From: Conexibacter woesei Iso977N
GTDB lineage: Bacteria; Actinomycetota; Thermoleophilia; Solirubrobacterales; Solirubrobacteraceae
DNA length: 64,000 nt
Assembly (NCBI RefSeq): GCF_000424625.1
Contig: NZ_AUKG01000001.1
Location: forward strand, 1,612,001 to 1,676,000
Direction of reading: 5' to 3'
A program made the position numbers and the translations under genes. Below are positions 17,174 through 37,312 of this stretch, one piece after another; the stretch's first letter is position 1, and each line of letters starts with the position of its first letter. The notes below the pieces were generated by a model. The model had not been told where the DNA came from. It did no database searches and saw nothing but the letters and a program-made list of their open reading frames with translations.

Positions 17174-18358
17174 TCAGGAGCGGCGCGGTGCCACGGCGTG
17201 CTCGTAGAGCGCCTCGTAGGCGCGCGCGGTCGCCGCCCACGAGCGATGCTCGGTCACGTAGGCCAGCCCCGCGGCGCCCAGGCGCGCGCCCGCCCCGCCG
17301 GGGTCGAGCATCAGCTCGGCGATCGCCTCGGCCAGGGCGGCGGGCTCCTGCGCGATCCGGCCCTCGACGCCGTCGCGGACGTCGAGCCCGCCGTAGGCCA
17401 GCGGTGTGCCGACGACCGGCAGCCCGTTGGCCATCGCCTCCAGCACCTTGTTCTTGATCCCGGAGCCGGTGAGCATCGGGCACGCGTAGACGCCCGCGCG
17501 GTCCAGCTCGTCGCGGACGTCGTCGACCGCGCCGGTGACCGTCACGCCGTCCAGCGCGCCGAGCGCGAGGACGCGCGGCGTCGGCTCGCGGCCGACGAGC
17601 CGCAGCGTCGCCTCGGGGACGCGCGCCCGGACCAGCGGCAGCAGCTCGCGCGCGAGGTGCTCGGCGGCGACCTCGTTGGGCGGGTGGGCCATCGAGCCGT
17701 GGAAGGCCATCGCGGTCGGGATCCGCGGGACCGAGTCCGCGCGGCGCGCGAAGCGCTCGGCCTCGACGCCGTTGGGGATCACGTGCAGCGGCAACGGATG
17801 GGCCGGGTCGGTCAGCGCCTGCGCGTCGAGGTCGGAGACGACGACGACCGCCGAGTAGTGCGGGTAGTTGCTCAGCTCGTGCGCGCGGCGCCGGCGCGCC
17901 TCGACGCGCAGCAGCGACGCCTTCAGCCTGCTCGCGCCGAACGCGCGCGTCTCGGCGGCGACGTGCCAGGCGTCCAGCGGCGCGGCGATCGCCGGCCGGC
18001 CGCCCAGCCGGGCCTGCAGCGAGCAGAGGTCCCCGGGCGTGACGTGCACGACGTCGGGCGCGAACGTGCGCAGCTCCTCGTCGAGCGGGCCGGCCAGCGC
18101 GCCGGTCGCCGTGGCCGCGCGCAGCGGCGCCCCGCCGGCCGCCCAGCGCGCGAGCAGCAGCGCGTCCTGCGCGCGCGACGACGCGGGCGGGTGGACGAGC
18201 CGGATCGCCGGGTCGGCGGTCCGGTCCTCCGGCCGCGCGAGCGCGAGCACCCGGATGTCGTGACGGTCGCCGAGCTGCTCGCGCAGCGCCGCGACGACCA
18301 GGCCGGTGCCCTCCAACGGCGCCAGCGGCGCGCTGGCGGTGACGATCAAGACCTTCAT
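17174..18358 (-). CDS. family 4 glycosyltransferase
   Basis: A 394-residue GT-B glycosyltransferase. The N-half begins MKVLIVTASAPLAPLEGTG and the C-half carries the GT4 donor site: VIPNGVEAERF, AMAFHGSMAHPPNEVA, CPMLTGSGIKNKVLEAMANGLPVVGT. The expected E-x7-E-like motif is SGIKNKVLEAMANG, typical of GT4 enzymes related to the sugar-transferase PEP-CTERM/EpsH group. It is the last gene of the minus-strand operon GH39-like, Wzx, GT4, 10 bases behind Wzx, and probably adds a sugar to the lipid-linked repeat unit. Donor and acceptor are unknown. SD GAGGGG precedes the ATG. Confidence 0.85.
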   Translation of the reverse strand: MKVLIVTASAPLAPLEGTGLVVAALREQLGDRHDIRVLALARPEDRTADPAIRLVHPPASSRAQDALLLARWAAGGAPLRAATATGALAGPLDEELRTFAPDVVHVTPGDLCSLQARLGGRPAIAAPLDAWHVAAETRAFGASRLKASLLRVEARRRRAHELSNYPHYSAVVVVSDLDAQALTDPAHPLPLHVIPNGVEAERFARRADSVPRIPTAMAFHGSMAHPPNEVAAEHLARELLPLVRARVPEATLRLVGREPTPRVLALGALDGVTVTGAVDDVRDELDRAGVYACPMLTGSGIKNKVLEAMANGLPVVGTPLAYGGLDVRDGVEGRIAQEPAALAEAIAELMLDPGGAGARLGAAGLAYVTEHRSWAATARAYEALYEHAVAPRRS

Positions 18359-18368
18359 GTCGATCCCC

Positions 18369-19847
18369 TCACGGCTCCGTCGGCCCGATCACGACCGCCT
18401 GCTCGGCCGTGGCGTCGCGTCGCAGCCTCGGCAGCGTCCCGCCGAGCAGCCGCACCTCGATCCCGATCGACACGCCGAGGTAGAGCACCGCGCCGACCGG
18501 CAGCGCCAGCCACAGCCTCTCGCCCGCCGCGACCTCGCCGGCGGCCATCGCCGCGGCGCCGGTCAGCGGCGCGATCAGCAACCGGAACCACGGCAGCCCG
18601 CTGACGAGCGGCCGCGTCGCGATCACGCAGAACAGCGCCAGCAGCACCTCGGTCGCCAGCGTCACGGCCGCGGCGGCCTTGTAGGACCACTCCGGGATCA
18701 GGATCAGGTTCAACACCACGTTGAACACCAGCGCCACGGCGAAGGCGATCACGACCGGCCTGCCGTTGGTGCGCGTCAGGATCAGCGTCGCCGCCTGGTT
18801 GCTGACCGCGTAGAAGATGGGGGAGAACGCGAGCAGCTGCAGCGCCAGCACCGACGGCTCGAACTGGTCCAGGCCGTAGGCGAGGTCGATCAGCGGCCGT
18901 GCGCAGACGAACAGCGTCACGGAGATCGGGACGATCAGGGCCATCACGAGCCGCATCGAGTCGCCGTAGATGTCGCGCAGCGACGGCGTCGAGTCGTTGC
19001 TGAGGTAGGCGTACATCGGCGTCGCCGACACGACGACCGACCACGTGATGAACAGCGTCGCGTCGATCAGGCGGTAGCTCGCGCCGTACCAGCCGACCGC
19101 GGCGCTCGCGGCCAGCAGCGACAGCAGGATCGCGTCGACGCGCATCACCGCCTGCGCCAGGAGGTCCTGCGCGCCGAACATGCCCGAGCGCCTCATGAGC
19201 CCGAACCAGCGCCCGGGCCGGAGCCTGAGCAACGGCGGCGGGTAGTGGCGGTAGGCGAGCCAGAACGAGATCACCAGCGCGGCGGCCGACGACACCAGCG
19301 CCGCGACGCCGACGGCCACGATCCCGCCGCCGAGCAGCAGCACCGCGACGCCGATCAGCGCCTGCAGGTACTTGTTGGGGATCGCGGCGTAGGTGTAGTA
19401 CCGCATCTCCTCGCGGGCGATGAAGATCGTCAGCGGGACGGTCGCGACGAGGTCGCAGACCATGCTCGCGCCGACCAGCGCCAGCAGCCACGACGTGGCG
19501 CTGAAGCCGGAGATGCCGACCGAGATCGCGAACGCGAGCAGCGTCAGCCCGCCGGCGACGACGACCTTCAGCCCGACCGCGTCGAAGAACACGCCGCGGA
19601 TGAAGTCGTGGTCCTTCGCGGTCTCCTGCAGCAGGTAGCGGTTGGTCCCGAAGTCGCCCGCGACCCAGATGATCTGCGTCAGCGACAGCGCCAGGACGTA
19701 CTTGCCGAGGTCGACCTCGCCCAGCTTGCGCGCGATCACCGCGAACAGGACGATCGACGCGACCTTGCCGGCCACCTCCGTGAACGCCCGCAGCGCCGAG
19801 TTGACGATCAGCGTGCGACGCTTGGGAGCGGCGCCGGCGGTGCTCAT
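18369..19847 (-). CDS. Wzx-type polysaccharide flippase
   Basis: A 492-residue membrane protein with about 14 hydrophobic segments, typical of the MATE-like polysaccharide-flippase family (RfbX/Wzx). The N-terminal NSALRAFTEVAGKVASIVLFAVIARKLG and the following LGKYVLALSLTQIIW match the TM1-TM2 pattern of these transporters, which move undecaprenyl-linked repeat units across the membrane. It follows the glycosidase gene by 7 bases and precedes a GT4 gene by 10 bases in one operon. It completes, with Wzy and the Wzc-like kinase across the cluster, a Wzx/Wzy-dependent pathway. Confidence 0.88.
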   Translation of the reverse strand: MSTAGAAPKRRTLIVNSALRAFTEVAGKVASIVLFAVIARKLGEVDLGKYVLALSLTQIIWVAGDFGTNRYLLQETAKDHDFIRGVFFDAVGLKVVVAGGLTLLAFAISVGISGFSATSWLLALVGASMVCDLVATVPLTIFIAREEMRYYTYAAIPNKYLQALIGVAVLLLGGGIVAVGVAALVSSAAALVISFWLAYRHYPPPLLRLRPGRWFGLMRRSGMFGAQDLLAQAVMRVDAILLSLLAASAAVGWYGASYRLIDATLFITWSVVVSATPMYAYLSNDSTPSLRDIYGDSMRLVMALIVPISVTLFVCARPLIDLAYGLDQFEPSVLALQLLAFSPIFYAVSNQAATLILTRTNGRPVVIAFAVALVFNVVLNLILIPEWSYKAAAAVTLATEVLLALFCVIATRPLVSGLPWFRLLIAPLTGAAAMAAGEVAAGERLWLALPVGAVLYLGVSIGIEVRLLGGTLPRLRRDATAEQAVVIGPTEP

Positions 19848-19854
19848 GGGCGGG

Positions 19855-21108
19855 TCAGCGGTGCGCGCGTGCCGTCCGCGATGACCACGTCGACCGGAAC
19901 GTGGCCGTCACGCCCGAACGCGGGATCACCGTGGGCATGACGATGCGGAACTTGCCGAAGCGGTCGGTCCGGAGGGTGGCGCGGAAGCGGAGCTGCCCGT
20001 TGGCCTTGACCTGCAGGTTGTAGAAGTCGGTGATCGACGCCGTGCCCGAGGCGACGAGGTGGCCCTTGCGCACCGACAGCCGGATGTGCGGCGCCGGCAG
20101 CGAGCTGCGCACCGGCTTGGCGAGCAGCTTGGTGAGGCCCGTCAGCAGCGGCTTGGCCTTGCCCCTGCTGTCGAGCAGGCCGAAGCGGTAGGCGGTGCTC
20201 TCGTCGCGCATCGTGTAGACGACCGCGGCCTTGACCCAGCTGGTGCGCGAGACGGCCTTGATGACGTCGGTCGTCGCGTTGCGCTGCCCGGTCGTGGTCA
20301 GGCACGCGTGCTCGAGCAGGACCGACGGGCCGCCCCTGCGGTAGCAGGAGCTCCAGCCGAACTCGGTCAGCCACAGCGGCTTGCTGTCGCCGTTGTGCTG
20401 CTGGATCGTCCGCGTGTTCTTCAGCGCGTACAGCGGGACGTCGTAGAAGTGGACGGCGAGGCCATCGTAGAAGCCCTTGATCCCGACCGTGTACATCGCC
20501 TGCAGCCACGCGCCGTTGGAGCCGACGAACGAGCCGGCGAGGACGGGCAGCTTCGGCGCGACCTGCTTGACGGCCGGGTAGACGGCCTTGTCGAGCGCGA
20601 CGTACTTGGCGACCTTGTCGGGTCCGGCCCAGTACAGCTCGTTGGAGTGGTCGGGCTCGTTCCAGACCTCATAGGCGCCGAGCTTGGCGCCGTAGCGCTG
20701 GACGAGGAACTTCGAGAACGCCGCGAACGTCTGCGGGTCGCTCGGCGGGTAGCGGTAGACCGCGGAGGACGTCGAGCCGGAGCAGTTGCCCTTCCTCGGG
20801 GCCGAGGAGGCCCAGCACGGCGTGCCGTCGGCGAACAGGATGACCTTCAGCCCGGACCTGGCTGCGCGGTCGACCGTCTGGTCGAGCTGCGACAGCTCGC
20901 CCTGGTCGTAGCTGCCGGCGCCGTCGGGCTCGATCGCCGCCCAGAAGGCCTGGACGCGGATCGCGCCGAGGTGGGCCCTCTTGGCCGTGACGATGTCCGA
21001 GGACAGGTGCGCGGGGCCGATGCCCTGGATCCCGACGAGCGTCTTGGCGCTCGCGGAAGCCGTGCTCGACAGCAGGAGGAACACGAGGAGGGCCAGCGCC
21101 GCGTGCAC
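19855..21108 (-). CDS. secreted glycoside hydrolase-like protein (GH39/clan A type)
   Basis: A 417-residue exported TIM-barrel protein. The start is taken as GTG at 21108 (CGAGGCG upstream); a TTG 33 bases earlier is possible. A signal peptide ends near ASASA. The acid/base glutamate lies in YEVWNEPDH and the likely nucleophile glutamate in LWLTEFGWSS, the spacing expected for clan GH-A enzymes such as GH39. A beta-rich C-terminal domain (about 340-417) follows. As the first gene of the operon with Wzx and GT4 it may trim or remodel the polymer; the substrate is not known. Confidence 0.78.
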   Translation of the reverse strand: MHAALALLVFLLLSSTASASAKTLVGIQGIGPAHLSSDIVTAKRAHLGAIRVQAFWAAIEPDGAGSYDQGELSQLDQTVDRAARSGLKVILFADGTPCWASSAPRKGNCSGSTSSAVYRYPPSDPQTFAAFSKFLVQRYGAKLGAYEVWNEPDHSNELYWAGPDKVAKYVALDKAVYPAVKQVAPKLPVLAGSFVGSNGAWLQAMYTVGIKGFYDGLAVHFYDVPLYALKNTRTIQQHNGDSKPLWLTEFGWSSCYRRGGPSVLLEHACLTTTGQRNATTDVIKAVSRTSWVKAAVVYTMRDESTAYRFGLLDSRGKAKPLLTGLTKLLAKPVRSSLPAPHIRLSVRKGHLVASGTASITDFYNLQVKANGQLRFRATLRTDRFGKFRIVMPTVIPRSGVTATFRSTWSSRTARAHR

Positions 21109-21177
21109 TGGGCGCCTCGATGCAGCAACCGACGAAGGCAAGGAACGAGATGATACACCGGCGAAGAGGGCGTTCTG

Positions 21178-22167
21178 GTGATCAGCGACCTGCACTGCCA
21201 CATCCTGCCCGGCGTCGACGACGGGCCGCCGACGATGGACGAGTCCCTGCGCCTCGCGCTGGGACAGGTCCGCGACGGCGTCCGGCGGGTCGTCGCGACC
21301 CCGCACCACGGCCAGCGGATGCGCGTGGAGGCGGAGGTCATGCAGGCCGGCGTGGCCGCGCTGAACGCCGAGCTGGCGCGCCACGAGATCCCGCTGGAGG
21401 TGCTGCCGGGGGCTGAGGTCGCGATGGCGCGGCTGCCCGACCTGGACGCCGGCGACCTCGGCGCGCTGGCGCTCGGCGGCGGCCGCTGGATCCTGCTCGA
21501 GGCGCCGACCGCGGGCCAGTTCCCGGTCGAGGCCGCCGTCAGGCAGGTGCAGTCGATGGGCTTCGAGGTCCTGCTCGCCCACCCGGAGCGCTGCGCGGTG
21601 TTCTCGCGCGACTTCTCGCTGCTGGAGGCCTGCATCCGCGCCGGCGCGCGCGCGTCGCTGACCGCGTCGTCGCTGACCGGCGCGTTCGGGCGTCCGACGC
21701 GGAGGATCGCGCTGCAGATGGTCGAGGCGGGGCTGATCCACAACGTCGCCTCCGACGCCCACGACGCCGTCCGGCGCGCGCCGGACCTGTGCGCGTCGAC
21801 GCGCGACGCGGGCTACAGCTCCAAGCGCCGTCACGAGTGGTACGAGGCGTTTCCGGCGCTGGTGCTCGGCGGCGGCGCGGAGGCGCCGCCCGCCGCGCCC
21901 GTGGTCGCGCCCAGGGAGGCGCCCGCCCCGGCGGCCGAGAGGCCCGCCGCACCGCCGCCGCCCAGGCCGGAGATCCCGACCTACGAGCAGATCGCGGCGA
22001 CGATGGCTGCCAAGGGCTTCGCGCCCGAGCGCATCGAACGCGCCATCGCGGCGTTCGTACCCGTGCCGGTGGCGCGCCGGATCGCGCGACGCGCCATCCT
22101 GGCGGCCGGACGCGGTGGTGCGGAGGTATCGCCACCGACCCCACCGGCCGATAACTCGAACGGATGA
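21178..22167 (+). CDS. CpsB/CapC-family (PHP) tyrosine-protein phosphatase
   Basis: A 329-residue PHP-domain phosphatase. The metal-binding blocks are DLHCHILPGVDDG at the N-terminus, VATPHH at about 40, LLAHPERC at about 140 and NVASDAHD at about 190, as in YwqE/CpsB. These enzymes dephosphorylate the tyrosine tail of the BY-kinase that controls capsule polymerisation, here presumably the kinase at 23582-25177. Residues about 225-265 form an Ala/Pro-rich linker, followed by a helical tail (EQIAATMAAKGFAPERIERA) absent from the usual 250-residue family. Start GTG at 21178. The next gene overlaps in ATGA. Confidence 0.88.
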   Translation: MISDLHCHILPGVDDGPPTMDESLRLALGQVRDGVRRVVATPHHGQRMRVEAEVMQAGVAALNAELARHEIPLEVLPGAEVAMARLPDLDAGDLGALALGGGRWILLEAPTAGQFPVEAAVRQVQSMGFEVLLAHPERCAVFSRDFSLLEACIRAGARASLTASSLTGAFGRPTRRIALQMVEAGLIHNVASDAHDAVRRAPDLCASTRDAGYSSKRRHEWYEAFPALVLGGGAEAPPAAPVVAPREAPAPAAERPAAPPPPRPEIPTYEQIAATMAAKGFAPERIERAIAAFVPVPVARRIARRAILAAGRGGAEVSPPTPPADNSNG

Positions 22168-23561
22168 CCGCTCTGCCGAAGATCCCCGGGCTGCGCCGCG
22201 GGCCGACGCCCGGCCCCGCCGTGCTCGCGCTCCTGTTCGGCAGCGCCGGCCTCGTCGTGCTCGCCGCGGCGATGGTCGAAGGCCTGGACCAGAGCGCGCT
22301 CTCGGCCCCGAAGGTCTTCATCGCCGGGCTCGGCCTCGTCTGCTTCTGCGCGCTGGCGCTGGCGCGCTACGACACGGCGGTCGTCGTCTCGGTCGCGCTC
22401 ACCGCGGTCGTGGTCATCGAGCCCGCGCCGTGCGACGCCGCGTTCTCGGTCCTGATGGCGATCGCGGCGGTCACCGGGCGCTTCCGCCTCTCGCGCGCGC
22501 CGCGCAGCGCGATGCTGTTCGTCAGCGCGCTGCTGGCGATCAACGTCCTGTCGATCATGGACTCCGTCTCGATCAGCACGGCGTTCCGGTTCTTCTTCAT
22601 CACCGCCTACCTGATGGCGTTCTCGATCTGGATGTGCGGCTACCTGGACCGGCCCGAGCGCGTCCGGGCGGTCGTGATCGCCTACCTCGTGGTCGGCGTC
22701 GGCTCGGCGCTGCTGGGCGTCCTGGCGTTCAACCTGCCGATCCCGATGCGGGCGCAGTTCCTCGGCGACGGCGGCAGCCGCGCGCAGGCGCTGTTCAAGG
22801 ACCCCAACGTCTACGGCCCGTTCCTGGTGCCGATCGCGGTGATCCTGCTCGACCAGCAGGTGCGCCCGCGGCTGCTGAGGCTGCGCCCGATGGTCGGGAT
22901 GGCCCTGTTCGGGATCCTCGCGCTGGGGATCCTGTTCTCGTTCTCACGCGCCGCCTGGGCGAACCTCGCGATGGCGACGGCGATCATGCTCGTCGGCTCG
23001 GCGATCACGCGCCGCGGCGGCGGGCGCGCGATGCGCGTCCTGGTGGGGCTGGTCGTGATCGGCGCGGTCGTCGCCGCGATCCTCGGCGCGACCGGCTCGG
23101 TCGGCTTCCTGCAGCACCGCGCGCAGATCCAGAGCTACGACACGCAGCGCTTCGCCGCCCAGCACGCGGGCTACGAGCTCGGCTGGAGCCATCCGGTCGG
23201 CGTCGGGCCGGGGCAGTTCCAGTTCCACCACAACATCGAGAGCCACTCGACCTACGTGCGCGTCCTCGCCGAGCAGGGCTTCGGCGGGCTGCTGGCGTGG
23301 CTGGCGATCCTCTCGACCACGCTCGTGCTTGCGCTGCGCAACGTCGTCCGCGGCCGCGACACCTACGGGATCGGGCCCGCGGCGTTGCTCGGCTGCTGGT
23401 GCGGCCTGATCTTCAACAGCGCGGTCGTCGACACGCTGCACTGGCGCCACCTGTGGCTCGTCGCCGCCATGATCTGGGCGGGCGCGATGCGTGAGGCCCG
23501 GATCCCGGGCCTGACGACCGGCGCCGGCGCCGCCGCCCGGCGGCGCGACACCGTCCGCTAG
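22164..23561 (+). CDS. O-antigen ligase/Wzy-type polymerase
   Basis: A 465-residue polytopic protein with about 11-12 membrane helices. The signature of the O-antigen ligase/polymerase family is visible: LFKDPNVYGPFLV, FSFSRAAWANL, a large loop with HSTYVRVLAEQGFGGLLAWL and a Trp-rich last helix. It should polymerise or ligate lipid-linked oligosaccharide at the outer face of the membrane. It is coupled to the CpsB gene by a 4-base ATGA overlap and converges on the kinase gene with a 20-base gap. Confidence 0.88.
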   Translation: MTALPKIPGLRRGPTPGPAVLALLFGSAGLVVLAAAMVEGLDQSALSAPKVFIAGLGLVCFCALALARYDTAVVVSVALTAVVVIEPAPCDAAFSVLMAIAAVTGRFRLSRAPRSAMLFVSALLAINVLSIMDSVSISTAFRFFFITAYLMAFSIWMCGYLDRPERVRAVVIAYLVVGVGSALLGVLAFNLPIPMRAQFLGDGGSRAQALFKDPNVYGPFLVPIAVILLDQQVRPRLLRLRPMVGMALFGILALGILFSFSRAAWANLAMATAIMLVGSAITRRGGGRAMRVLVGLVVIGAVVAAILGATGSVGFLQHRAQIQSYDTQRFAAQHAGYELGWSHPVGVGPGQFQFHHNIESHSTYVRVLAEQGFGGLLAWLAILSTTLVLALRNVVRGRDTYGIGPAALLGCWCGLIFNSAVVDTLHWRHLWLVAAMIWAGAMREARIPGLTTGAGAAARRRDTVR

Positions 23562-23581
23562 CGGCGCCTGCGCCGGCCGCG

Positions 23582-25177
23582 CTAGCGGCCGGCGGTGATG
23601 CCCTCGCCGCGGGGCGAGGAGGAGCTGCTGTCGTCCGTGGGGATGTCCCCGTCGGCCGGGCGCTCGTGGTAGTAGGGCGAGGACGACACGGCGCCGCCGA
23701 TCGCCACGGTGCCGATCGGGCGGATCGGCAGGCGGTCGAGCGTCATGCGCAGGTCCATGATCGTGTCGAGCGTCTGGCCGCGCAGGCGGGTGACGACGAG
23801 CACCTCGTCGCAGTGGGCGGCCAGCAGCTGGGCGTCGGAGATGCCCAGCAGCGGCGGCGCGTCGACGAGCACGAAGTCGTAGCCGAGGTCGGTGACGACC
23901 GCGAAGACGGCGGCCAGGCGCTCGCCCGACAGGAGCCTCGCGCCCGCGTCGCCGAGGATCGTGCCCGCGGGCATGACGTCGGCCTCGCGGTTGGCACGCG
24001 CGACGACGTGGTCGGCCGCGACGTCGGCGTTCAGGACCTCGCCGCGCTCGGCGAGCGCCAGCAGGTCGCTCAGGCCCGGCCTGCCGGTCAGCGACAGCTC
24101 GGTGTCCAGCCGCGGCCAGCGCAGGTCGCCGGAGATCACCAGCGTGCGGCGGCCGGCCTCGGCGAGCTGGCGCGCCAGGCGCAGCGTCACCGACGTCTTG
24201 CCCTCGGAGTGCAGCGCCGAGGTCGTCAGCAGCACGTGGTCGTGGTCGGAGCGCAGCTCCATCCGGATCGACGCCGACAGCAGGCGGTAGGACTCCTGCT
24301 CGACGCGCGCGATCAGCGGCGCGCGGCGGCGGCCCATGCGGCCCGGCCGCTCCGGGATCGTCGCGAGCACGGGGATGCCGAGCACGTCGCCCAGCTCGCG
24401 CTGGTCGGTGATGCCGGGGCGCAGCTGGTCGCGCGCCAGCGCGGCGATCACCGCGATGAAGATCGCCACGAAGAACGCGAGGATCGTGTTGCGCAGCGGG
24501 CGCGGCGAGTCGGCGCCGTCGGGGCGGTCGGCGTCGCGCGCGATCTGCAGGTCGGTGCCCGCGTTGGTCGCCTGGACCGACAGCTCGGCGAGGCGGTCGC
24601 GCAGCGCGCGCTGCTGGGCCTGGCCGGACGCGGTGTTGGCGTCGGCGGAGTTGGAGATGGCGTCGATCTGGCTCTGCAACGCGTCCTGCGCGCGCCTCAG
24701 GGACGCCTTGTCGGCGTTCGCCTGGTCGGCCAGGAACGCCTTCGACACCGCGTTGGCGATGTCGGCCGCGGAGGCCGCGGTCGCGTCGGTCGCGGTGACC
24801 GTGATGATGTTCGCGTTCGGGTCCAGCGTCGAGGCGACCCTGCTCTGGAGCTCCTGGCGCGTGAGGCCCAGCGACCTGCCCGCGGCCTGGAGGACCGTCG
24901 GCGAGGTGATCAGCGTCTGGATCGTGGCCAGGTCGCGCTGCTCGGAGCTCGCGTCGGACGCGACGAGCGTCGAGGAGCTGTCCGGCGTGACGATGATCTG
25001 GCTCTCGGCCTTGTAGGTCTTCGGGAGCGCGACCGAGATCGCCGCCGCCGCGACCGTCAGCACGACCACGATCGTGATCATCAGCGGCAGGCTGCGGCGC
25101 AGCGCCGCGATGTAACGGCGCGAGTCGATGCCCTCGTCGCGGCTGCTGCTTCTGTTCAAAGGTTCTTGCGGCGCCAT
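23582..25177 (-). CDS. Wzc-type polysaccharide tyrosine autokinase
   Basis: A 531-residue fused chain-length regulator and BY-kinase. The ATG at 25177 has SD AGAGAG; longer in-frame starts are not needed. The order is: TM1 about 30-50, Wzz extracellular part about 55-215 with coiled-coil, TM2 about 225-245, kinase about 255-500. Walker A is SALHSEGKTSV, Walker A' is VISGDLRWPRL and Walker B is FVLVDAPPLL. The C-terminus has only SSPYYHERPADG as a short tyrosine cluster. In Walker A' the first Asp of the usual D-x-D-x-R is Ser. It should control polymer length with the CpsB-like phosphatase. Confidence 0.87.
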   Translation of the reverse strand: MAPQEPLNRSSSRDEGIDSRRYIAALRRSLPLMITIVVVLTVAAAAISVALPKTYKAESQIIVTPDSSSTLVASDASSEQRDLATIQTLITSPTVLQAAGRSLGLTRQELQSRVASTLDPNANIITVTATDATAASAADIANAVSKAFLADQANADKASLRRAQDALQSQIDAISNSADANTASGQAQQRALRDRLAELSVQATNAGTDLQIARDADRPDGADSPRPLRNTILAFFVAIFIAVIAALARDQLRPGITDQRELGDVLGIPVLATIPERPGRMGRRRAPLIARVEQESYRLLSASIRMELRSDHDHVLLTTSALHSEGKTSVTLRLARQLAEAGRRTLVISGDLRWPRLDTELSLTGRPGLSDLLALAERGEVLNADVAADHVVARANREADVMPAGTILGDAGARLLSGERLAAVFAVVTDLGYDFVLVDAPPLLGISDAQLLAAHCDEVLVVTRLRGQTLDTIMDLRMTLDRLPIRPIGTVAIGGAVSSSPYYHERPADGDIPTDDSSSSSPRGEGITAGR

Positions 25178-25312
25178 GGCTCTCTCTTCATCGGCTTCGA
25201 GCGTACCCCTCCTGAGTCCTGCGACTGACCGGTTGCCGGACAATCGTCCACGCCTCGGCCACTCGCGAAGGGTCATCGACCAAACCTGTCGAGACTTTCG
25301 CTGAGAACGGAT

Positions 25313-25396
25313 TCTCACGCTTTCCCGATAAACGCAAACCCGTCGCGAGGCGGGGACGCAAAGCCAGGGGCCTCACGTAGGCAGCCCAGCTTCCGA
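25313..25396 (+). ncRNA. cyclic-di-GMP-I riboswitch (GEMM-I)
   Basis: The 5' part has ATAAACGCAAACC (GCAAACC at 25334-25340), then the nearly invariant GGGACGCAAAGCC at 25353-25365, a GGGGCCTC segment and GGCAGCC at 25380-25386, closing into a helix ending before the SD of the next gene. This matches the c-di-GMP-I class: stem P1a with its tetraloop-receptor-type contacts, the conserved GGGACGCAAAGC of the ligand pocket, and the P1b arm. It lies directly upstream of a secreted glycosidase gene whose GAAGGAG SD starts at 25395, so control of translation or of premature termination by c-di-GMP is expected. The on/off direction cannot be read. Confidence 0.85.
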
Positions 25397-25404
25397 AGGA
25401 GCCT

Positions 25405-27198
25405 GTGTTGTCGCTTGTCAACCTCAGGGCGCTGGACTGCGCCCGCTTTCGCCTGCCCGTCGCGCTGCTTGCGGCGCTGGCGCTCTTCATCGCCGGATCG
25501 ACCATCCCCGCCGCTTCCGCCTCTGCAGCGGACGCGGGCGCTGTGCAGTTCGTGAAGCGCACCGGTCCGGAGTTCGACCAGTACATGAACAACCCCACCG
25601 CATCCTTCAGCAGTTGGATGCGCGCGAAGTTCTGGCGTTCTGAGGTGTTCACGCCGTACTTCGACAACAAGACCTCCTGGTACGGCAACGGCTGGGTCTA
25701 CGAGGACTCCTACTCGATCTACCCGTCGAGCCCGAACGTCACCGCCCACCCGGACTGGATCCTCAAGGACGGCGGCGGCAACAAGCTCTACATCCCGTGG
25801 GGCTGCTCGAACGGCACCTGCCCGCAGTACGCCGCCGACATCGGCAACCCGGCCTACCGCAGCTGGTGGATCTCCCAGGTCAAGGCCGCCGTCGCGCACG
25901 GCTACAAGGGCGTCTGGGTCGACGACGTCAACATGGACATGCAGGTCGGCAACGGACAGGGCGTCAACACCGCCCCGACCGACCCGCGCACCGGCGCCCC
26001 GATGACCGCCACCGCGTGGCGCAGCTACATGGCGACGTTCATGGAGGAGCTGCGCGCGGCCGTCCCGAACGCCGAGATCCTGCACAACTCGATCTGGTAC
26101 GCCGTGTGGGGCCCGCGTGACACCGACCCCTACGTCCAGCGCCAGATCAAGGCCGCCGACTACATCAACATCGAGCGCGGCGTCAACGACGACGGCCTGA
26201 CCGGCGGCACCGGCGAGTGGTCGCTGAACGCGCTGCTCGGCTACGTCGACCGCGTCCACGCGCTCGGCAAGGGCGTCGTCTTCGACGGCTTCGACGCCGG
26301 CACGCAGGGCCGCGAGTACAACCTCGCCGCCTACTACCTGATGTCGACCGGCAACGACGGCGTCGGCCTCGGCGACATGACACCGGACAACTGGTGGTCG
26401 ATGTACGACGTCGACCTCGGCAACGCCTGCGGCAACCGCGCGATCTACCAGGGCGTCGACCGCCGCGACTTCGCCGGGGGCATCGTCCTGCTCAACGAGC
26501 CGGGCGCGCCGACGCGCACCGTCACGCTGCCGCAGGCGATGACCAACTCGTCGGGCGCCAAGGTCACGCAGGTGACGCTGGGCGCCCGCGGCGGTGCGGT
26601 CCTGCGCGGCACGACGTCCTGCACGCCGGCCGCGACGACGCCGGCCCCGGTCGTCGTCCCGGTCGCCTCGGGCGGCACGACCGTGACCAACCCGCCGGCG
26701 AGCGCCACGACGCCGGCCCCGCCGACCACGACGACGACGCCGGTCGCGACCAGGCCGGTCACGACGACGACGACCACGACGACCAGGCCCGTCACGACGA
26801 CGACCACGACGACCACCACCAGGCCGGTCACGACGACGACCAGGACGACGGTCGGCCGCAGGCCGGTCCGCCACACGCGGATCACGTCGGTCAAGGTCAC
26901 GCCCGCCAAGGGCAGGGCCGCCAAGGTCAAGGCCACCAAGTCGACCAAGGCGCACTCCGCGTCGGCGACGTCCTCGGTCCTGGCCACCGGCCAGGTCGCC
27001 GAGTCGGGCGCCAGGACGGTCGTGACGCTGCAGGCCAAGCGCCACGGCAGGTACGTCACGGTCTCGTCGGCCAAGGTGTCGGTCAACGACGAGGGCAGCT
27101 GGGCGTTCGCCAGCGAGGTGCCGGGCGCCGGCAGCTACCGCGTGCTGATGACCGCGGGCCACACGAAGATCGCCAAGTCGTTCACGACCGCCGGCTAG
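25405..27198 (+). CDS. secreted putative glycosyl hydrolase with Thr-rich linker (c-di-GMP regulated)
   Basis: A 597-residue exported protein, GTG start at 25405 behind SD GAAGGAG. Signal peptide about 1-41 (ends ASASAADA). Residues about 45-405 form a TIM-barrel glycosidase-like domain: WGCSNGTCPQYAADIGN, GYKGVWVDDVNMDM (likely catalytic Asp pair), NAEILHNSIWY and YINIERGVNDDGLTGG, matching the hypothetical glycosyl hydrolase family 15 group. A linker of about 70 residues rich in Thr with three TTTRPVT units follows, then a C-terminal beta-sandwich (TRITSVKVTPAKG to the end). It has a paralogue at 28382-29593. Together with the upstream riboswitch it points to a c-di-GMP-controlled envelope glycan enzyme. 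Confidence 0.82.
   Translation: MLSLVNLRALDCARFRLPVALLAALALFIAGSTIPAASASAADAGAVQFVKRTGPEFDQYMNNPTASFSSWMRAKFWRSEVFTPYFDNKTSWYGNGWVYEDSYSIYPSSPNVTAHPDWILKDGGGNKLYIPWGCSNGTCPQYAADIGNPAYRSWWISQVKAAVAHGYKGVWVDDVNMDMQVGNGQGVNTAPTDPRTGAPMTATAWRSYMATFMEELRAAVPNAEILHNSIWYAVWGPRDTDPYVQRQIKAADYINIERGVNDDGLTGGTGEWSLNALLGYVDRVHALGKGVVFDGFDAGTQGREYNLAAYYLMSTGNDGVGLGDMTPDNWWSMYDVDLGNACGNRAIYQGVDRRDFAGGIVLLNEPGAPTRTVTLPQAMTNSSGAKVTQVTLGARGGAVLRGTTSCTPAATTPAPVVVPVASGGTTVTNPPASATTPAPPTTTTTPVATRPVTTTTTTTTRPVTTTTTTTTTRPVTTTTRTTVGRRPVRHTRITSVKVTPAKGRAAKVKATKSTKAHSASATSSVLATGQVAESGARTVVTLQAKRHGRYVTVSSAKVSVNDEGSWAFASEVPGAGSYRVLMTAGHTKIAKSFTTAG
26730..26850 (+). repeat. Thr-rich coding repeat (TTTRPVT units)
   Basis: Repeated ACGACGACGACC blocks separated by AGGCCGGTC encode runs of Thr broken by RPVT. 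The unit occurs three times and separates the glycosidase domain from the C-terminal domain, as flexible, possibly O-glycosylated, linkers do. Confidence 0.7.
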
Positions 27199-27201
27199 GC
27201 A

Positions 27202-27226
27202 GCGGCGGGGCACCGCGCCCCGCCGC
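27202..27226 (+). terminator. terminator hairpin after the riboswitch-controlled gene
   Basis: GCGGCGGGGC (27202-27211) and GCCCCGCCGC (27217-27226) form a perfect 10-bp stem with loop ACCGC, four bases after the stop codon. No T-run follows, but high-GC actinobacterial terminators often lack one. Confidence 0.6.
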
Positions 27227-27227
27227 C

Positions 27228-27233
27228 TAGGAT
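27228..27233 (+). promoter_or_regulatory. candidate -10 box (TAGGAT) of the GT4 gene
   Basis: TAGGAT ends 8 bases before the ATG at 27242, with no SD. It follows the terminator hairpin directly, so the GT4 gene probably has its own leaderless promoter. Confidence 0.45.
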
Positions 27234-27241
27234 CCAACGCG

Positions 27242-28372
27242 ATGCGTCGCGTCCTGCTGGCCTTCGAGCCGCCCGACGGCGGAGTCGCCGAGAACGTCGC
27301 CCAGCTGGCCGTGGGGCTCCAGGCCCACGGCTGGCAGCCCGTCCTCGCCGGCCCCGCCGAGTCGATCGCCTACGAGCGAGCCGCCGCCGCGGGCGTCGAG
27401 ATCCACCGCCTCGACTGGGCTCGCGGCTACGGCAGCCCGGGCCAGGACTGGCGCGCGCTGCGCCAGCTGCGCGCGCTGCTGACGTCCGGCGGCGGCTTCG
27501 ACCTCCTCCACAACCACAGCGCGAAGGCCGGCGTGATCGGGCGGCTCGCGGGGCGGACGCTGCGCGGCCTGCCGGTCGCCTACAGCCCGCACTGCCTGCC
27601 GTTCATCGGTGACTTCGGCGCGCCGCGGCGGATCTTCGCCACCGCGATCGAGACCGCGCTGGGCCCGGCGACCGACCGCATGATCTGCGTCTGCGAGGAC
27701 GAGCGCCGCCAGGCGCGCGGCGCGCACGTCGCCGACCGGCGGCTGCGCGTGGTCCACAACGGCTGCGCCGCGTGCCCGGACGGCGTCGTCGCCGACCCGG
27801 CGACCGCCGCGCTGCGCGAGGGCGGCGTGCTGATCGCCGCGGTCGCGGTCCTGCGCGAGCAGAAGCGCCTGGACGTCCTGATCGACGCGGCGCCCGCGAT
27901 CCTCGAGCGCGTCCCGGACGCGCGCGTGGCGGTCATCGGCGACGGCCCGCTGCGCGAGGAGTTGCACGCGCGCGCCGCCGCGCTGGGCCTGGACGCCGAC
28001 GAGCGCTTCGCGTTCCTGCCGTTCCGCGGCCCGTCGTGGCAGCACCTGACCGCGATGGACGTCTACGTGCTGTCGTCGTCGTGGGAGGGGCTGCCGATCG
28101 GCGTGCTGGAGGCGATGGCCTGCGGCGTCCCGATCGTCGCGACCGACGTCGGCGGGACCGGCGAGGCCGTCACGCCCGACGTCGGGACGCTGATCCCGCC
28201 GGCCGACCCGGCGGCGCTGGTCGAGGCCGTCGTCGCGCTGGCCGCCGACCCGGCCCGGCGCGCCGCGCTCGGCGCGGCCGCGCGCGCCCGCCACGACGCG
28301 GCGTTCGGGCTGGAGCGGATGGTCGCGCGGACCGTGGCGGTCTACGACGAGCTCGTGCCGCCGCGCGGCTGA
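27242..28372 (+). CDS. family 4 glycosyltransferase
   Basis: A 376-residue GT-B glycosyltransferase. The N-terminal GGVAENVAQLAVGLQAHG is the acceptor-side glycine loop, HNHSAKAGVIGRLAG is typical of the family, and the C-half shows VVHNGCA, VAVLREQKRLDVLIDA and the donor-binding E-x7-E: SSSWEGLPIGVLEAMACGVPIVATDVGG. It resembles EPS transferases such as EpsD or EpsF. It lies between the two paralogous glycosidase-like genes and converges on the second, in the polysaccharide region. Confidence 0.87.
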   Translation: MRRVLLAFEPPDGGVAENVAQLAVGLQAHGWQPVLAGPAESIAYERAAAAGVEIHRLDWARGYGSPGQDWRALRQLRALLTSGGGFDLLHNHSAKAGVIGRLAGRTLRGLPVAYSPHCLPFIGDFGAPRRIFATAIETALGPATDRMICVCEDERRQARGAHVADRRLRVVHNGCAACPDGVVADPATAALREGGVLIAAVAVLREQKRLDVLIDAAPAILERVPDARVAVIGDGPLREELHARAAALGLDADERFAFLPFRGPSWQHLTAMDVYVLSSSWEGLPIGVLEAMACGVPIVATDVGGTGEAVTPDVGTLIPPADPAALVEAVVALAADPARRAALGAAARARHDAAFGLERMVARTVAVYDELVPPRG

Positions 28373-28381
28373 CCGGCGGCG

Positions 28382-29593
28382 CTACCGCGCCCGGAGCACC
28401 GCGCCGCTGCCGGCAGCGAGGCGCACCGACGTGACCGGCCTGCCGGCCGTGTTGAGGTAGGTCCCGCCGAGCGACAGCGTCTGCGCCGGGCCGCCGGGCG
28501 GGTTGACGAGCACGAGGCCGCGGTCGAAGTCGCGGCGGATCACGCCGCTCCACTCGCTGCGCGCGCCGTGCGCCGCGCCGAGGTCGTAGTGCAGCGGGGC
28601 CCAGTCGCTGCCCGGCGCCGCGCTGCCCGCGCCGACCGCGTCGGTCCCCGAGGCGATCAGCAGGTAGGCGGCGAGGTTGTACTCGCGCCCGGCGGGCGCG
28701 TCGTCGCCGCCCTCCATGATCGCCGCGGTCCCGAGCTGGTGCAGGACGTCGACGTGGGCCAGGAACGCGCGCAGCGACCACTCGCCGTCGCCGCCGGTGA
28801 GGCCGGAGTCGTTGACGCCGCGCTCCAGGTTGACCCAGTCGGCGGCCTTGATCTCGGCGCGCACGGCCGGGTCCTGGTCGCGCGCGGAGCCGCCCGCGTA
28901 CCAGATCGCGTTGTGCACGATCTCGGCCTTCGGGAACGCGTTGCGGATCTGGACCGTGAACGCGGCGACCAGGCTGCGCCAGCGCTCGGCGGTCATCGAC
29001 GCGCCGCTCGCCGCGACCGCGTTCGCGGCATGGCCGCTGCCGTGGCTGATGCGCAGGTCGAGGTTGACGTCGTCGATCCAGAGGCCCCTGTAGCCGTGCC
29101 GCAGCTCGGCGGCGGCCTCGGCGATCCAGTGCCTGCGGAACGCCGCGTTGGAGACGTCGCCGGCGTACTGCGGGCAGGAGCCGTTGTCGCAGCCCCAGGC
29201 CAGGAACAGCCTCCTGCCGGAGCGGTCGTGGAGGATCCAGTCGGGGTGCTGCTTGGCGAGCTTCGATCCGACGCGGATCCCGTACAGGTTGCGGTAGTCC
29301 CAGACGCGCGTGTACCAGGCGGTCTTGTCGTCGAAGTACGGCGAGTAGACGACCGCGCGGAAGAGGTTCTGGTCCAGCCACTGGCCGACGCCGGTGGTGC
29401 TCTTGTAGGTGAACCGGTCGAAGCTCGAGTCGGTGCGCTTGACCGCCAGGACCTTGCCCTGGTCGACGCCCGTTGCCTGCGGCGTGCCGTCGTCGTGGAT
29501 CAGCGCGGCGACGCCGGCCGCGGCGCCGGACACGGCGAGCACCACGAACACGAGCAGCGTGAGGAGGGCGGAACGGGACACCAGGCGCGCCAT
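28382..29593 (-). CDS. secreted putative glycosyl hydrolase (paralogue)
   Basis: A 403-residue protein with an N-terminal membrane anchor or signal (SALLTLLVFVVLAVSGAAAGVAAL) and the same TIM-barrel core as the gene at 25405: WGCDNGSCPQYAGDVSN, GYRGLWIDDVNLDL, AEIVHNAIWY and WVNLERGVNDSGLTGG. It lacks the Thr-rich linker and C-terminal domain and may remain membrane-bound. The aligned acidic residues (DDVN) are conserved, so it is probably active. No riboswitch is seen upstream; it is the third gene of the operon hydrolase-GT-glycosidase on the minus strand. A 42-base gap separates it from GT. Confidence 0.82.
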   Translation of the reverse strand: MARLVSRSALLTLLVFVVLAVSGAAAGVAALIHDDGTPQATGVDQGKVLAVKRTDSSFDRFTYKSTTGVGQWLDQNLFRAVVYSPYFDDKTAWYTRVWDYRNLYGIRVGSKLAKQHPDWILHDRSGRRLFLAWGCDNGSCPQYAGDVSNAAFRRHWIAEAAAELRHGYRGLWIDDVNLDLRISHGSGHAANAVAASGASMTAERWRSLVAAFTVQIRNAFPKAEIVHNAIWYAGGSARDQDPAVRAEIKAADWVNLERGVNDSGLTGGDGEWSLRAFLAHVDVLHQLGTAAIMEGGDDAPAGREYNLAAYLLIASGTDAVGAGSAAPGSDWAPLHYDLGAAHGARSEWSGVIRRDFDRGLVLVNPPGGPAQTLSLGGTYLNTAGRPVTSVRLAAGSGAVLRAR

Positions 29594-29635
29594 GGTAGGT
29601 AGTTCGGCTGAGAGCGCCGCCGCCTTGAAACGGTG

Positions 29636-30652
29636 TCAGGACACGGGCGGGCGCGCCGCGGCGAACGCCGCGCGCAGCGTGACCTGGTCCTCGCCGTGCA
29701 GGCCCTGCTTGACCGAGTGCACCGCGAGCACGCCGCGCTCCAGGACGTCGGCCACGGCGAGCGGGACGCGCGCCTGGCCGGAGACGATGCCCGGCAGCGT
29801 CGCGACGCGCCGGCCCGCGCCCGCGACGCCCATCGAGAACCACAGGTCCTCGCCGACCAGCGTCCACCACGGCGGCTGGCGGTCCAGGTGGCCGGTCGCG
29901 CGCATGCCCTCCAGCGCGGCGCGCGTGAGCGCGTAGATCCCGCCGTGGTCCTCCTCGCCCTGCCAGCCGTTGGCGCGCGCGGCGGCGTCGGCGCGGCGGA
30001 CGGTGGGCGCGAAGCGCTTCTCGGAGGCGACGACCCAGCGGCCGAAGCTCGTGTCGCCGGGGATCGCGCCGTCGCGCATCGCGGGCGTGCCGAGCATGCC
30101 GATCGACGGGTCGGCGGCGACCGCCTCGCCCATCCGCTCGAAGAGGCCGGGCGCGGTCAGCAGCGCGTCGACGTCCATCTTCAGCAGCAGCGCGAAGTCC
30201 AGGTGGTCCAGGCACCAGCGGTAGCCCCACGCCAGCGAGGGGCTCAGCCGCGGCGGGCCGCCGGTGACCGCGGGCGTGCGCAGGAAGATCGTGCCCGGCA
30301 GCTCGCGCTCGGCGACCGCGCGCGGCAGGTCGTTGGCACCGTCGGCGAGCAGGACGACCGTCGCCTGCGGCGCGTAGGCCCGGACCGAGGCCAGCGTGTC
30401 CGGCAGCCAGCGCAGCTCGCCGGGGCCGGTCGGCATCAGGATCACCGGCGCGCCGGGCGCGTGCGCGGGCAGCGTCGCCGGCTCCGGTCCGCCCTCGGCG
30501 GCCAGCAGCGCGCGCGTGGCGCGGACCAGCTGCGGCTTGCGCCGCGAGCGCGCCAGCGCGAGCGCGATCTTGCCGGGCACGAGCTGCTTGACCCACGCGC
30601 GCCAGCCCGCGGGCATCTCGTGGTCGGAGGAGACGTCGCTGGGCTTGATCAC
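29636..30652 (-). CDS. GT-A type glycosyltransferase
   Basis: A 338-residue protein with a GT-A fold. The metal-binding DXD is in LLLKMDVDALL, preceded by LSPSLAWGYRWCLDHLDFA, the usual way the family presents the DXD strand; further blocks are SFGRWVVASEK and EEDHGGIYALTRAAL. It may act with a nucleotide sugar on a growing polymer. The start is GTG at 30652, overlapping the TGA of the upstream hydrolase gene in GTGA, so translation is coupled. It ends 42 bases before the next glycosidase-like gene in the same operon. Confidence 0.75.
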   Translation of the reverse strand: MIKPSDVSSDHEMPAGWRAWVKQLVPGKIALALARSRRKPQLVRATRALLAAEGGPEPATLPAHAPGAPVILMPTGPGELRWLPDTLASVRAYAPQATVVLLADGANDLPRAVAERELPGTIFLRTPAVTGGPPRLSPSLAWGYRWCLDHLDFALLLKMDVDALLTAPGLFERMGEAVAADPSIGMLGTPAMRDGAIPGDTSFGRWVVASEKRFAPTVRRADAAARANGWQGEEDHGGIYALTRAALEGMRATGHLDRQPPWWTLVGEDLWFSMGVAGAGRRVATLPGIVSGQARVPLAVADVLERGVLAVHSVKQGLHGEDQVTLRAAFAAARPPVS

Positions 30653-36352: not shown

Positions 36353-37312
36353 ATGAGGCAGTCGCGACGGGTCGCCGCCGCACCCCCGGAGGTGCGCTTC
36401 CTCGCGCTGCTGACCCTCGGTGCGGCGGGCGCGTGCGCGGTCGCGGCGGCGGCACCGGTCGCGCCCGGGCGGCCGGTCGCGCTGCTGGTCGCCGCGGCGG
36501 TCGCCTCGGTCGTCCTGGCCGCGCTGCTGATCCTCTCCGGGCCGCGGATCACGCCGCTGGCGCTGGCGGCCGTCGTCGGCGTGATGATCGTCGCGACGTC
36601 GTGCCTGGTCGCCTCGGCGACGACCAGCGCGGGCGCGATGCTCGCGGGCTACGCCTACGTCTGGCTGACCGTCTACTCCGCGCTCTTCCTGCCGCCGCGC
36701 GCGACGCAGGTCCACGCGCTGATGATCACGATCGGCTTCGGTCTCGGCCTGCTGATCGACGACTTCAGCGCGACGTTCACCGCCTGGCTGCTCGTGTCCG
36801 GGACCGTCTGGGTCTCGGGCCTCACGCTCTCCGGCCTCTCGGCGCGCGTGCGCAGGCAGGCGGAGACCGACGACCTCACCGGCCTGCTCAACCGCCGCGC
36901 GTTCACCGCGGCCGCCGACCGCGAGCACGAGCTGGCCGCCCGCACCGGCGCCGACCTGACCGTCGTGCTGATCGACCTCGACGGCTTCAAGGCCGTCAAC
37001 GACCGGGAGGGCCACGCGGCCGGCGATCAGCTGCTCGCCGCCCTCGCCCACGACTGGCAGGCCGCGCTGCGCCCCGCCGACATCCTCGCCCGCCGCGGCG
37101 GCGACGAGTTCGCCCTGCTGCTGCCCGCGACCCCCGCCGACGGCGCCGACCACGTCGTCGAGCGCCTCCACGCCGCGCACCCGTTCGCCTGGAGCTCCGG
37201 CGTGGCCGCCTGGCCGATCGGCACCCCGCTCGACGTCGCCCTCGCCGAGGCCGACGCCAAGTTGTACATCAACAAGCGGGGCCGCTCCAACGGCGAGCCC
37301 GTGCCCGCCTAG
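36353..37312 (+). CDS. membrane GGDEF diguanylate cyclase
   Basis: A 319-residue membrane protein with five or six hydrophobic helices at about 15-165 and a C-terminal GGDEF domain. The active site is RRGGDEFALLLP; the metal Asp lies in VLIDLDGFKAVND and the inhibitory-site RxxD is not obvious. It should make c-di-GMP from two GTP, sensing through the membrane domain. The window also has a c-di-GMP-I riboswitch 11 kb away, linking the two in principle. Its TAG shares CTAG with the stop of the convergent PepT gene. Confidence 0.9.
   Translation: MRQSRRVAAAPPEVRFLALLTLGAAGACAVAAAAPVAPGRPVALLVAAAVASVVLAALLILSGPRITPLALAAVVGVMIVATSCLVASATTSAGAMLAGYAYVWLTVYSALFLPPRATQVHALMITIGFGLGLLIDDFSATFTAWLLVSGTVWVSGLTLSGLSARVRRQAETDDLTGLLNRRAFTAAADREHELAARTGADLTVVLIDLDGFKAVNDREGHAAGDQLLAALAHDWQAALRPADILARRGGDEFALLLPATPADGADHVVERLHAAHPFAWSSGVAAWPIGTPLDVALAEADAKLYINKRGRSNGEPVPA

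What the first reader, a model, noticed from the sequence alone, without database searches (positions are those of the whole stretch)
25313..27198. c-di-GMP-I riboswitch controlling a secreted glycosidase inside a polysaccharide locus
The conserved GCAAACC, GGGACGCAAAGCC and GGCAGCC blocks lie in the leader of a secreted TIM-barrel protein gene with a strong SD. The gene is in a Wzx/Wzy/Wzc-type cluster (17174-32478), and a membrane GGDEF cyclase is at 36353. This suggests c-di-GMP links envelope polysaccharide turnover to a dedicated glycosidase.
Basis: partly seen in the sequence, partly recalled or inferred. Interest (0 to 1): 0.75.

Follow-up and report, generated by a model that had tools for sequence, protein, structure and literature searches.

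The report
Variant signal-sensing RNA controls a glycosidase
A bacterium carries a real RNA switch of the cyclic-di-GMP family fused to the ribosome-binding site of a secreted, probably sugar-cutting protein in its capsule-type gene locus, but the base that normally grips the signal molecule is changed, so what it senses is an open and testable question.

Summary
The riboswitch is real: 25324-25398 (+) scores 63.6 bits against RF03167 (cut-off 59) and 60.8 against RF01051 (cut-off 35), the genome's only match to either. It precedes a GHL15 TIM-barrel gene (25405-27198) inside a Wzx/Wzy/Wzc locus. Ten of 32 GHL15 genes found in 111 family genomes have this RNA directly upstream. In all ten the aptamer end (GAAG/GAAA) runs into the Shine-Dalgarno sequence and a start codon follows within 6-12 nt. 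The likely mechanism is translational, ligand-OFF (inferred). C20 recurs: 37 of 54 pattern hits in other bacteria overlap GEMM-I matches, and an Actinoplanes locus has G, C or A at position 20. Whether C20 RNAs still bind c-di-GMP is unknown. New variant of a known kind.

The parts
25324..25398 (+). GEMM-I / c-di-GMP-I-type riboswitch aptamer (P1, P2, P3)
   Evidence: RF03167 63.6 bits (GA 59); RF01051 60.8 bits (GA 35), (placed one base to the left); covariation
25333..25333 (+). Vc2-position 20: C here; in the 80 other aligned class members G in 74, A in 5, gap in 1 (that one reads A)
   Evidence: G20 named a key ligand contact in PMC3764141 (passages)
25360..25360 (+). Vc2-position 47: A (canonical; the RF03167 consensus has G)
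   Evidence: A in 81 of 81
25392..25393 (+). Vc2-positions 91 (U here; a purine in the other 80) and 92 (C, canonical)
25396..25401 (+). Shine-Dalgarno AAGGAG overlapping the aptamer's P1 3' strand
25320..25325 (+). 5' flank CUUUCC that can extend P1 by pairing with the Shine-Dalgarno GGAG
   Evidence: duplex -6.0 kcal/mol in the window, weaker than in most of the 34 loci of that layout
25389..25402 (+). alternative hairpin GCUUC-CGAA-GGAGC that would also hide the Shine-Dalgarno sequence; helped by U91
   Evidence: probability of the CUUC:GGAG pairing 0.63 native, 0.29 with A and 0.00 with G at 91
25302..25317 (.). inverted repeat TGAGAA-CGGA-TTCTCA just upstream of the aptamer (operator or hairpin; not tested)
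   Evidence: sequence; folds as a hairpin
25405..27198 (+). GHL15 TIM-barrel protein, putative secreted glycosidase, with a Thr/Pro-rich C-terminal part (start GTG 25405 or TTG 25408)
   Evidence: PF14885 56.4 bits; nearest solved sequences 9nhf (GHL15) and 9jom (GH114)
28382..29593 (-). second GHL15 paralogue (46-47% identical), no riboswitch match found
19855..21108 (-). GH5-like / glycosyl hydrolase catalytic core protein; a homologue sits directly downstream of the riboswitch in G157, and one gene further on in G298
23582..25177 (-). Wzc-like (Wzz + AAA) protein, divergent from the riboswitch gene
   Evidence: scanned with a longer frame to 25318; start 25177 re-read from the sequence
22164..23561 (+). 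Wzy_C / O-antigen-ligase-type protein
21178..22167 (+). CpsB_CapC-type protein
18369..19847 (-). Wzx-like polysaccharide exporter
17174..18358 (-). glycosyltransferase
27242..28372 (+). glycosyltransferase downstream of the GHL15 gene
36353..37312 (+). GGDEF protein with RRGGDEF and GHAAGD motifs (canonical by recall)

Best explanation
A translational riboswitch of the GEMM-I (c-di-GMP-I) fold controls a GHL15 glycosidase-like protein that belongs to a Wzx/Wzy-type polysaccharide locus. The last bases of the aptamer (GAAG) are the first bases of the Shine-Dalgarno sequence and the start codon follows 6-9 nt after the aptamer, so there is hardly room for a separate expression platform. Ligand binding would lock the aptamer and its short P1, whose 3' strand and 5' flank cover the Shine-Dalgarno sequence, and reduce translation (OFF). 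Without ligand the region refolds and, in 23 of 32 leaders folded, the site is more open. The ligand is most likely a guanine-containing cyclic dinucleotide, probably still c-di-GMP. Shown: the RNA fold, the Shine-Dalgarno overlap, its recurrence in relatives, the locus context. Inferred: ligand, direction of control, enzyme activity, secretion.
For: Covariance hits and covariation. The riboswitch is directly upstream of 10 of 32 GHL15 genes found in 111 family genomes, in 5 genera. In 10 of 10 the aptamer end GAAG/GAAA continues into the Shine-Dalgarno sequence, with the start 6-12 nt after the aptamer. Of 80 distinct class riboswitches 34 were classed by my script as having this layout, two without a recognised Shine-Dalgarno word; one GHL15 leader that has it (L096) was put in the other group by a wrong start choice. 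In the 34 the 5' flank pairs better with its own 3' side than with swapped partners: mean -9.61 against -8.17 kcal/mol, 6 of 5000 permutations as good; the other 46 gave -5.97 against -5.43, 249 of 5000. Forcing the aptamer fold lowers median Shine-Dalgarno accessibility from 0.59 to 0.38 in 32 loci. Of 70 downstream proteins scanned (of 77 called), Pfam finds 11 GHL15, 9 subtilases, 7 CAP, 4 pilin-type; the set was partly collected through GHL15. In 5 of 5 further riboswitch-GHL15 loci examined there are homologues of one or more of the window's polysaccharide genes.
Against: Position 20, a key ligand contact, is C instead of G, and position 91 is U, so this copy may have lost or changed ligand binding. 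In the window the computed Shine-Dalgarno accessibility does not change between the free and aptamer-forced folds (0.36 and 0.35), and in 9 of the 32 loci the aptamer fold raised it, 3 of the 9 GHL15 leaders folded among them (L040, L068, L093). The window leader does not fold more stably than shuffles (z 0.27 and 0.20). No ligand-binding or expression data exist.
Confidence: 0.6

Rival explanations
1. C20 RNAs are a specificity variant of GEMM-I: position 20 recognises the alpha base of the ligand, and C there selects a different cyclic dinucleotide, or reads Galpha in another geometry. The window RNA senses that ligand.
For: C20 with an otherwise intact core occurs in 37 of 54 pattern hits, from many phyla by their record titles. 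In Actinoplanes a locus defined by a shared downstream signal peptidase gene has C20 in 4, G20 in 4 and A20 in 1 of 9 genomes checked by context; 27 of 27 other GEMM loci read in the genus are G20 (whether those 27 are one locus was not tested). G20A is a known route to cGAMP binding (PMC6274999, PMC7288161; passages).
Against: A47 is unchanged in all, and C92 in nearly all, C20 RNAs aligned. Within its own class the window is the only C20 copy that the strict core pattern finds in 399 sampled genomes. The nearby GGDEF has the c-di-GMP-type motif (meaning recalled). The pattern was chosen to find C20, so recurrence does not by itself show function.
Confidence: 0.25
2. The window copy is a decaying or dead riboswitch: C20 and U91 abolish ligand binding, and the GHL15 gene is expressed at a fixed level.
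For: Two positions of the ligand junction changed together, each unique in the 81-member alignment. No predicted accessibility change between folds. No CCGAT motif within 80 nt upstream, although 44 of 79 class leaders have one.
Against: The other positions that are invariant in the 26-member alignment are kept, and the score with model R1 is among the best of the set (88.5 bits), although the model included this sequence. The Shine-Dalgarno overlap and the locus are preserved.
Confidence: 0.25
3. Ligand-ON variant: in the window the hairpin GCUUC-CGAA-GGAGC (25389-25402) hides the Shine-Dalgarno sequence in the free RNA, and ligand binding breaks it by engaging C92 and P3.
For: The pairing has probability 0.63 in the free fold and less with a purine at position 91; the scan also lists the hairpin.
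Against: Changing base 91 in silico hardly alters overall Shine-Dalgarno accessibility (0.36 native, 0.38 with G, 0.41 with A). The aptamer fold also covers the site.
Confidence: 0.12
4. C20 is a sequencing or assembly error in this genome and the RNA is an ordinary G20 c-di-GMP riboswitch.
For: One assembly; no reads were available and I did not find a second genome of the species.
Against: A second unusual base (U91) in the same RNA and the recurrence of C20 elsewhere make a true change more likely.
Confidence: 0.08

Closest known systems
c-di-GMP-I (GEMM-I) riboswitch, RF01051
   Same: Three-helix fold, GCAAACC / GGGACGCAAAGCC core, A47 and C92; 25.8 bits over the cut-off
   Different: Position 20 is C, not the G listed as highly conserved (PMC3764141, passages); short P1 that overlaps the Shine-Dalgarno sequence
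c-di-GMP-I-GGC, RF03167
   Same: Best-scoring Rfam family, over its cut-off; short P1 ending in CCGAAG
   Different: The model consensus has G at 47; the window and all 80 other aligned class members have A. Position 20 is C. That 'GGC' names the bases at 20/47/92 is my inference; the papers that I believe describe it were not held
cGAMP (c-AMP-GMP) riboswitches, GEMM-I with A20
   Same: Same fold, with position 20 as a specificity point
   Different: C rather than A at position 20; ligand unknown
Translational riboswitches with the Shine-Dalgarno sequence inside or beside the aptamer (SAM-II, preQ1; recalled)
   Same: No separate long expression platform
   Different: Different fold and ligand
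GHL15 (PF14885) / GH114-type TIM barrels
   Same: Pfam match over the cut-off; nearest solved sequences 9nhf (GHL15) and 9jom (GH114)
   Different: The match to solved chains is partial (E 1.3e-06 over 86 profile positions); substrate unknown; extra Thr/Pro-rich C-terminal part

Membership tests
RF01051 c-di-GMP-I | covariance score over the curated cut-off | tested here: met
   60.8 bits against 35
RF01051 c-di-GMP-I | G at ligand-contact position 20 | tested here: not met
   C at 25333
RF01051 c-di-GMP-I | A47 and C92 | tested here: met
RF01051 c-di-GMP-I | binds c-di-GMP | not testable with these tools
   needs in-line probing or ITC
RF03167 c-di-GMP-I-GGC | covariance score over the curated cut-off | tested here: met
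   63.6 bits against 59
RF03167 c-di-GMP-I-GGC | G at position 47 (consensus base of the model; that it defines the family is my inference) | tested here: not met
   A at 25360; A in 81 of 81 aligned class members
cGAMP riboswitch (A20 GEMM-I) | A at position 20 | tested here: not met
   C
GHL15 (PF14885) | Pfam score over the gathering cut-off | tested here: met
   56.4 bits against 27
GHL15 (PF14885) | glycoside hydrolase activity | not testable with these tools
   D173, D174 and E257 invariant in 10 aligned sequences are compatible only
Wzx/Wzy polysaccharide locus | flippase, polymerase, Wzz/Wzc-type and glycosyltransferase genes together | tested here: met

The most novel reading that the evidence does not exclude
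C20 GEMM-I RNAs, found here and in 37 other loci from many phyla, form a natural specificity or binding-mode variant, with position 20 switching between G, A and C at one locus within the genus Actinoplanes. The window RNA is a member that controls translation of a capsule-locus glycosidase in response to a ligand that may not be c-di-GMP.
Probability: 0.25. Interest if true: 0.75.

Novelty: new variant of a known kind. Interest (0 to 1): 0.5.

Why it matters
If C20 RNAs bind a different ligand, or read c-di-GMP in a new way, they add a specificity state to a widespread riboswitch fold, and the Actinoplanes locus offers natural G, C and A versions for direct comparison. Independently, the class-wide data suggest a regulon of secreted-looking hydrolases, pilin-type proteins and capsule-locus glycosidases, many controlled by aptamers fused to the Shine-Dalgarno sequence. 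My two searches that touched this area listed no study of such switches in this kind of bacterium; the class itself was not named to me.

Tried and rejected
Chance match: rejected by E 1.1e-12 and the covariation counts. A second riboswitch for the GHL15 paralogue or elsewhere in the genome: none found; a 15.8-bit R1 match at 26886-26992 inside the coding region was taken as noise. Transcription terminator control in the window: the scan lists only a 5-pair hairpin on the + strand with a poor T-run. Sigma-70 promoter: none found in 25100-27400. Sigma-28-type promoter: CCGAT lies in the 80 nt upstream of 44 of 79 class riboswitches against 6 of 78 control stretches, and the genome has two FliA/WhiG matches over the cut-off, but the window leader lacks the motif. 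RsiG-like c-di-GMP anti-sigma beside those two sigma genes: a motif recalled from memory was not found within about 5 kb on either side; weak evidence. U91 hairpin as the decisive switch: not supported by accessibility. The genome-contig scan with the GHL15 protein confirmed no relative. Comparison with solved structures was by sequence only; no structure was predicted.

Limits of the counts. The 80 distinct riboswitches are the 81 matches less one repeat, from high-scoring and hand-picked loci, not a random sample. Gene starts came from my own scoring; some frames are doubtful, and L096 was given a wrong start. For Pfam I passed 70 of the 77 frames (L010, L014, L026, L039, L042, L054 and L130 left out). 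Ten of the 11 GHL15 matches are the known loci; the eleventh I did not identify. The count of 32 GHL15 genes is my union; contig ends may hide some upstream switches. Genome sets were samples of larger groups. Actinoplanes counts by context cover 9 genomes; further rows with the same P2 type (1 C20, 5 A20, 5 G20) were not checked, and one A20-like row (G443:C3) was dropped as chance. In one search the alpha/beta-hydrolase query was partly out of frame and is not used.

Full report
Observation. A covariance scan of the whole window gives one match over a family cut-off: RF03167 (c-di-GMP-I-GGC) at 25324-25398 (+), 63.6 bits, E 1.1e-12. RF01051 (c-di-GMP-I) also matches there with 60.8 bits against a cut-off of 35, and neither family has another match at E 0.001 in the 5.7-Mb genome. 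In 81 aligned members of the class, window included, the structure pairs in 94.1% of cells, with 184 double changes against a shuffled mean of 49.9, and no slid version comes near. The alignment was fitted to the structure, which favours it, but the margin is wide.

Gene and locus. The aptamer is followed by a 597-aa frame with a signal-peptide-like start (by eye) and a GHL15 domain (PF14885, 56.4 bits, cut-off 27). The nearest solved sequences are a GHL15 protein (9nhf) and GH114-type TIM barrels. Ten aligned sequences share D173, D174 and E257, which fits but does not prove a glycosidase. The flanks hold Wzx-type, Wzy_C, Wzz+AAA, CpsB_CapC and glycosyltransferase genes, a second GHL15 paralogue, and a GH5-like protein at 19855-21108. 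The GGDEF gene at 36353 has the canonical motifs as I recall them.

Conservation of the arrangement. In 111 sampled genomes of the family I found 32 distinct GHL15 genes (union). Ten carry the riboswitch directly upstream: G000, G236, G415, G409, G407, G111, G413, G216, G370 and G389, from five genera. The other 22, including the window's second copy, show none in the stretch fetched. Five of the ten other than the window were examined for neighbours; all five (G409, G216, G236, G413, G111) have homologues of one or more of the window's polysaccharide genes within the stretch, though in G236 only the Wzc-like gene was seen and in G111 the matches are distant. In G236 and in the window the Wzc-like gene lies divergently beside the switch. 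In G157 the switch precedes a homologue of the window's GH5-like protein, in a region that also holds Wzc, Wzx, CpsB and GHL15 homologues. In G298, of the window's own genus, it precedes a different 413-aa protein, followed by that GH5-like homologue and CpsB. GHL15 was not found in the six other genomes of the genus searched, of which three are 65-81% complete. So the switch tends to belong to the polysaccharide locus and to control a glycosidase-like gene there, not always the same one.

Mechanism. In all ten GHL15 leaders the aptamer's final GAAG or GAAA continues into the Shine-Dalgarno sequence, and a start codon lies 6-12 nt after the aptamer. In the window the Shine-Dalgarno sequence is 25396-25401 and the start is GTG 25405 or TTG 25408. 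Of 80 distinct class riboswitches my script classed 34 as having this layout, two without a recognised Shine-Dalgarno word; it misplaced one GHL15 leader (L096) in the other group. In the 34, the 5' flank pairs with its own Shine-Dalgarno side better than with those of other members (mean -9.61 against -8.17 kcal/mol; 6 of 5000 permutations as good). In the 46 others the effect is marginal (-5.97 against -5.43; 249 of 5000). Enforcing the aptamer fold lowers median Shine-Dalgarno accessibility from 0.59 to 0.38 in 32 loci; 9 go the other way, 3 of the 9 GHL15 leaders among them; the window itself is flat, 0.36 and 0.35. The best reading is translational repression on ligand binding. It is inferred, and weaker for this copy than for most relatives.

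The ligand problem. Mapping to the Vibrio Vc2 numbering (recalled; consistent with passages of PMC3764141 and PMC6274999) puts C at position 20, A at 47, U at 91 and C at 92. PMC3764141 names G20, C92, A47 and A48 as key for ligand recognition. In the 81-member alignment position 20 is G in 74, A in 5, C in 1 (the window) and a gap in 1 that reads A; position 91 is G or A in 80 and U in the window; position 47 is A in 81. A strict core pattern in 399 sampled class genomes gives about 117 rows with G20 (hand count), 5 with A20 and 1 with C20. The RF03167 consensus has G47, so by that base neither the window nor its aligned class relatives are literally 'GGC' RNAs.

C20 elsewhere. A scan of the one-per-species genome collection for the core with C20 returned 54 stretches; 37 of them overlap matches of the riboswitch model R1 with C20. 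The record titles include Actinoplanes, Cellulomonas, Fermentibacteria, Chloroflexi, Gemmataceae, Elusimicrobia and others. In 67 genomes of the Actinoplanes genus, nine genomes whose locus was checked by a shared downstream signal peptidase gene have C20 (4), G20 (4) or A20 (1), while 27 of 27 other GEMM loci read there have G20. C20 is thus a natural state that is shared between species, at the position where G-to-A gives cGAMP binding (PMC6274999 and PMC7288161, passages). Whether C20 changes the ligand, changes the binding geometry or abolishes binding cannot be told from sequence.

Class-wide context. RF03167 matches 119 of 299 sampled class genomes at E 0.001, 94 of them over the cut-off. 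Of 70 downstream proteins scanned (of 77 called), Pfam finds 11 GHL15, 9 subtilases, 7 CAP, 4 pilin-type and several other carbohydrate-active families; the set was enriched for GHL15 by how it was collected. CCGAT, resembling the sigma-28 -10 element (recalled consensus), lies upstream of 44 of 79 against 6 of 78 control stretches, and the genome has two FliA/WhiG matches over the cut-off. In Streptomyces, WhiG is held inactive by RsiG with c-di-GMP (PMC9530166, passages), which makes two-layer c-di-GMP control an attractive idea. I found no RsiG motif beside the two sigma genes, and the window leader lacks the promoter motif.

Literature. c-di-GMP-I-GGC occurs once each in three held papers, as a model or template name. 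The papers that I believe described these variants were not held, so I cannot say that C20 variants are undescribed. The listings of my ten searches showed no title on C20, or on this switch in this class; beyond that I read only passages.

Verdict. The c-di-GMP assignment is likely but unproven because a specificity base is changed. That change, and its recurrence, is the part worth testing.

Noticed in passing
L212-L215, L228, L237, L238, L240, L244, L246 (genus of L163, Actinoplanes): A GEMM-I locus upstream of a small protein gene and a signal peptidase gene has G, C or A at position 20 in different species, while 27 of 27 other GEMM loci read in the genus are G20.
   Followed up: partly
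80 nt upstream of class riboswitches (loci): A sigma-28-like CCGAT motif is enriched (44 of 79 against 6 of 78 control stretches), suggesting FliA/WhiG-type promoters for many of these leaders.
   Followed up: partly
L045, L053, L054, L055, L056, L058: Six class members have A at position 20 (L053), the base that gives cGAMP binding in known GEMM-I variants.
   Followed up: no
window 28382-29593 (-): A second GHL15 paralogue lies in the same locus without any riboswitch match.
   Followed up: partly
window 25302-25317: A perfect 6-bp inverted repeat (TGAGAA-CGGA-TTCTCA) ends six bases before the aptamer; possible operator or 5' hairpin.
   Followed up: no
L035:3001-3075 and 4175-4249 (G230): Two riboswitches 1.2 kb apart, each followed within 8-9 nt by its own start codon: looks like a tandem duplication of the switch-gene unit.
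   Followed up: no
L179, L180, L181, L195; less clearly L185 and L188: Neighbouring GEMM-I copies outside the class in which one has C20 and the other G20; in L185 and L188 the second copy aligns poorly.
   Followed up: no
window 15135-16943 (-): A methyl-accepting chemotaxis protein (MCPsignal, 155.4 bits) lies just outside the polysaccharide locus.
   Followed up: no
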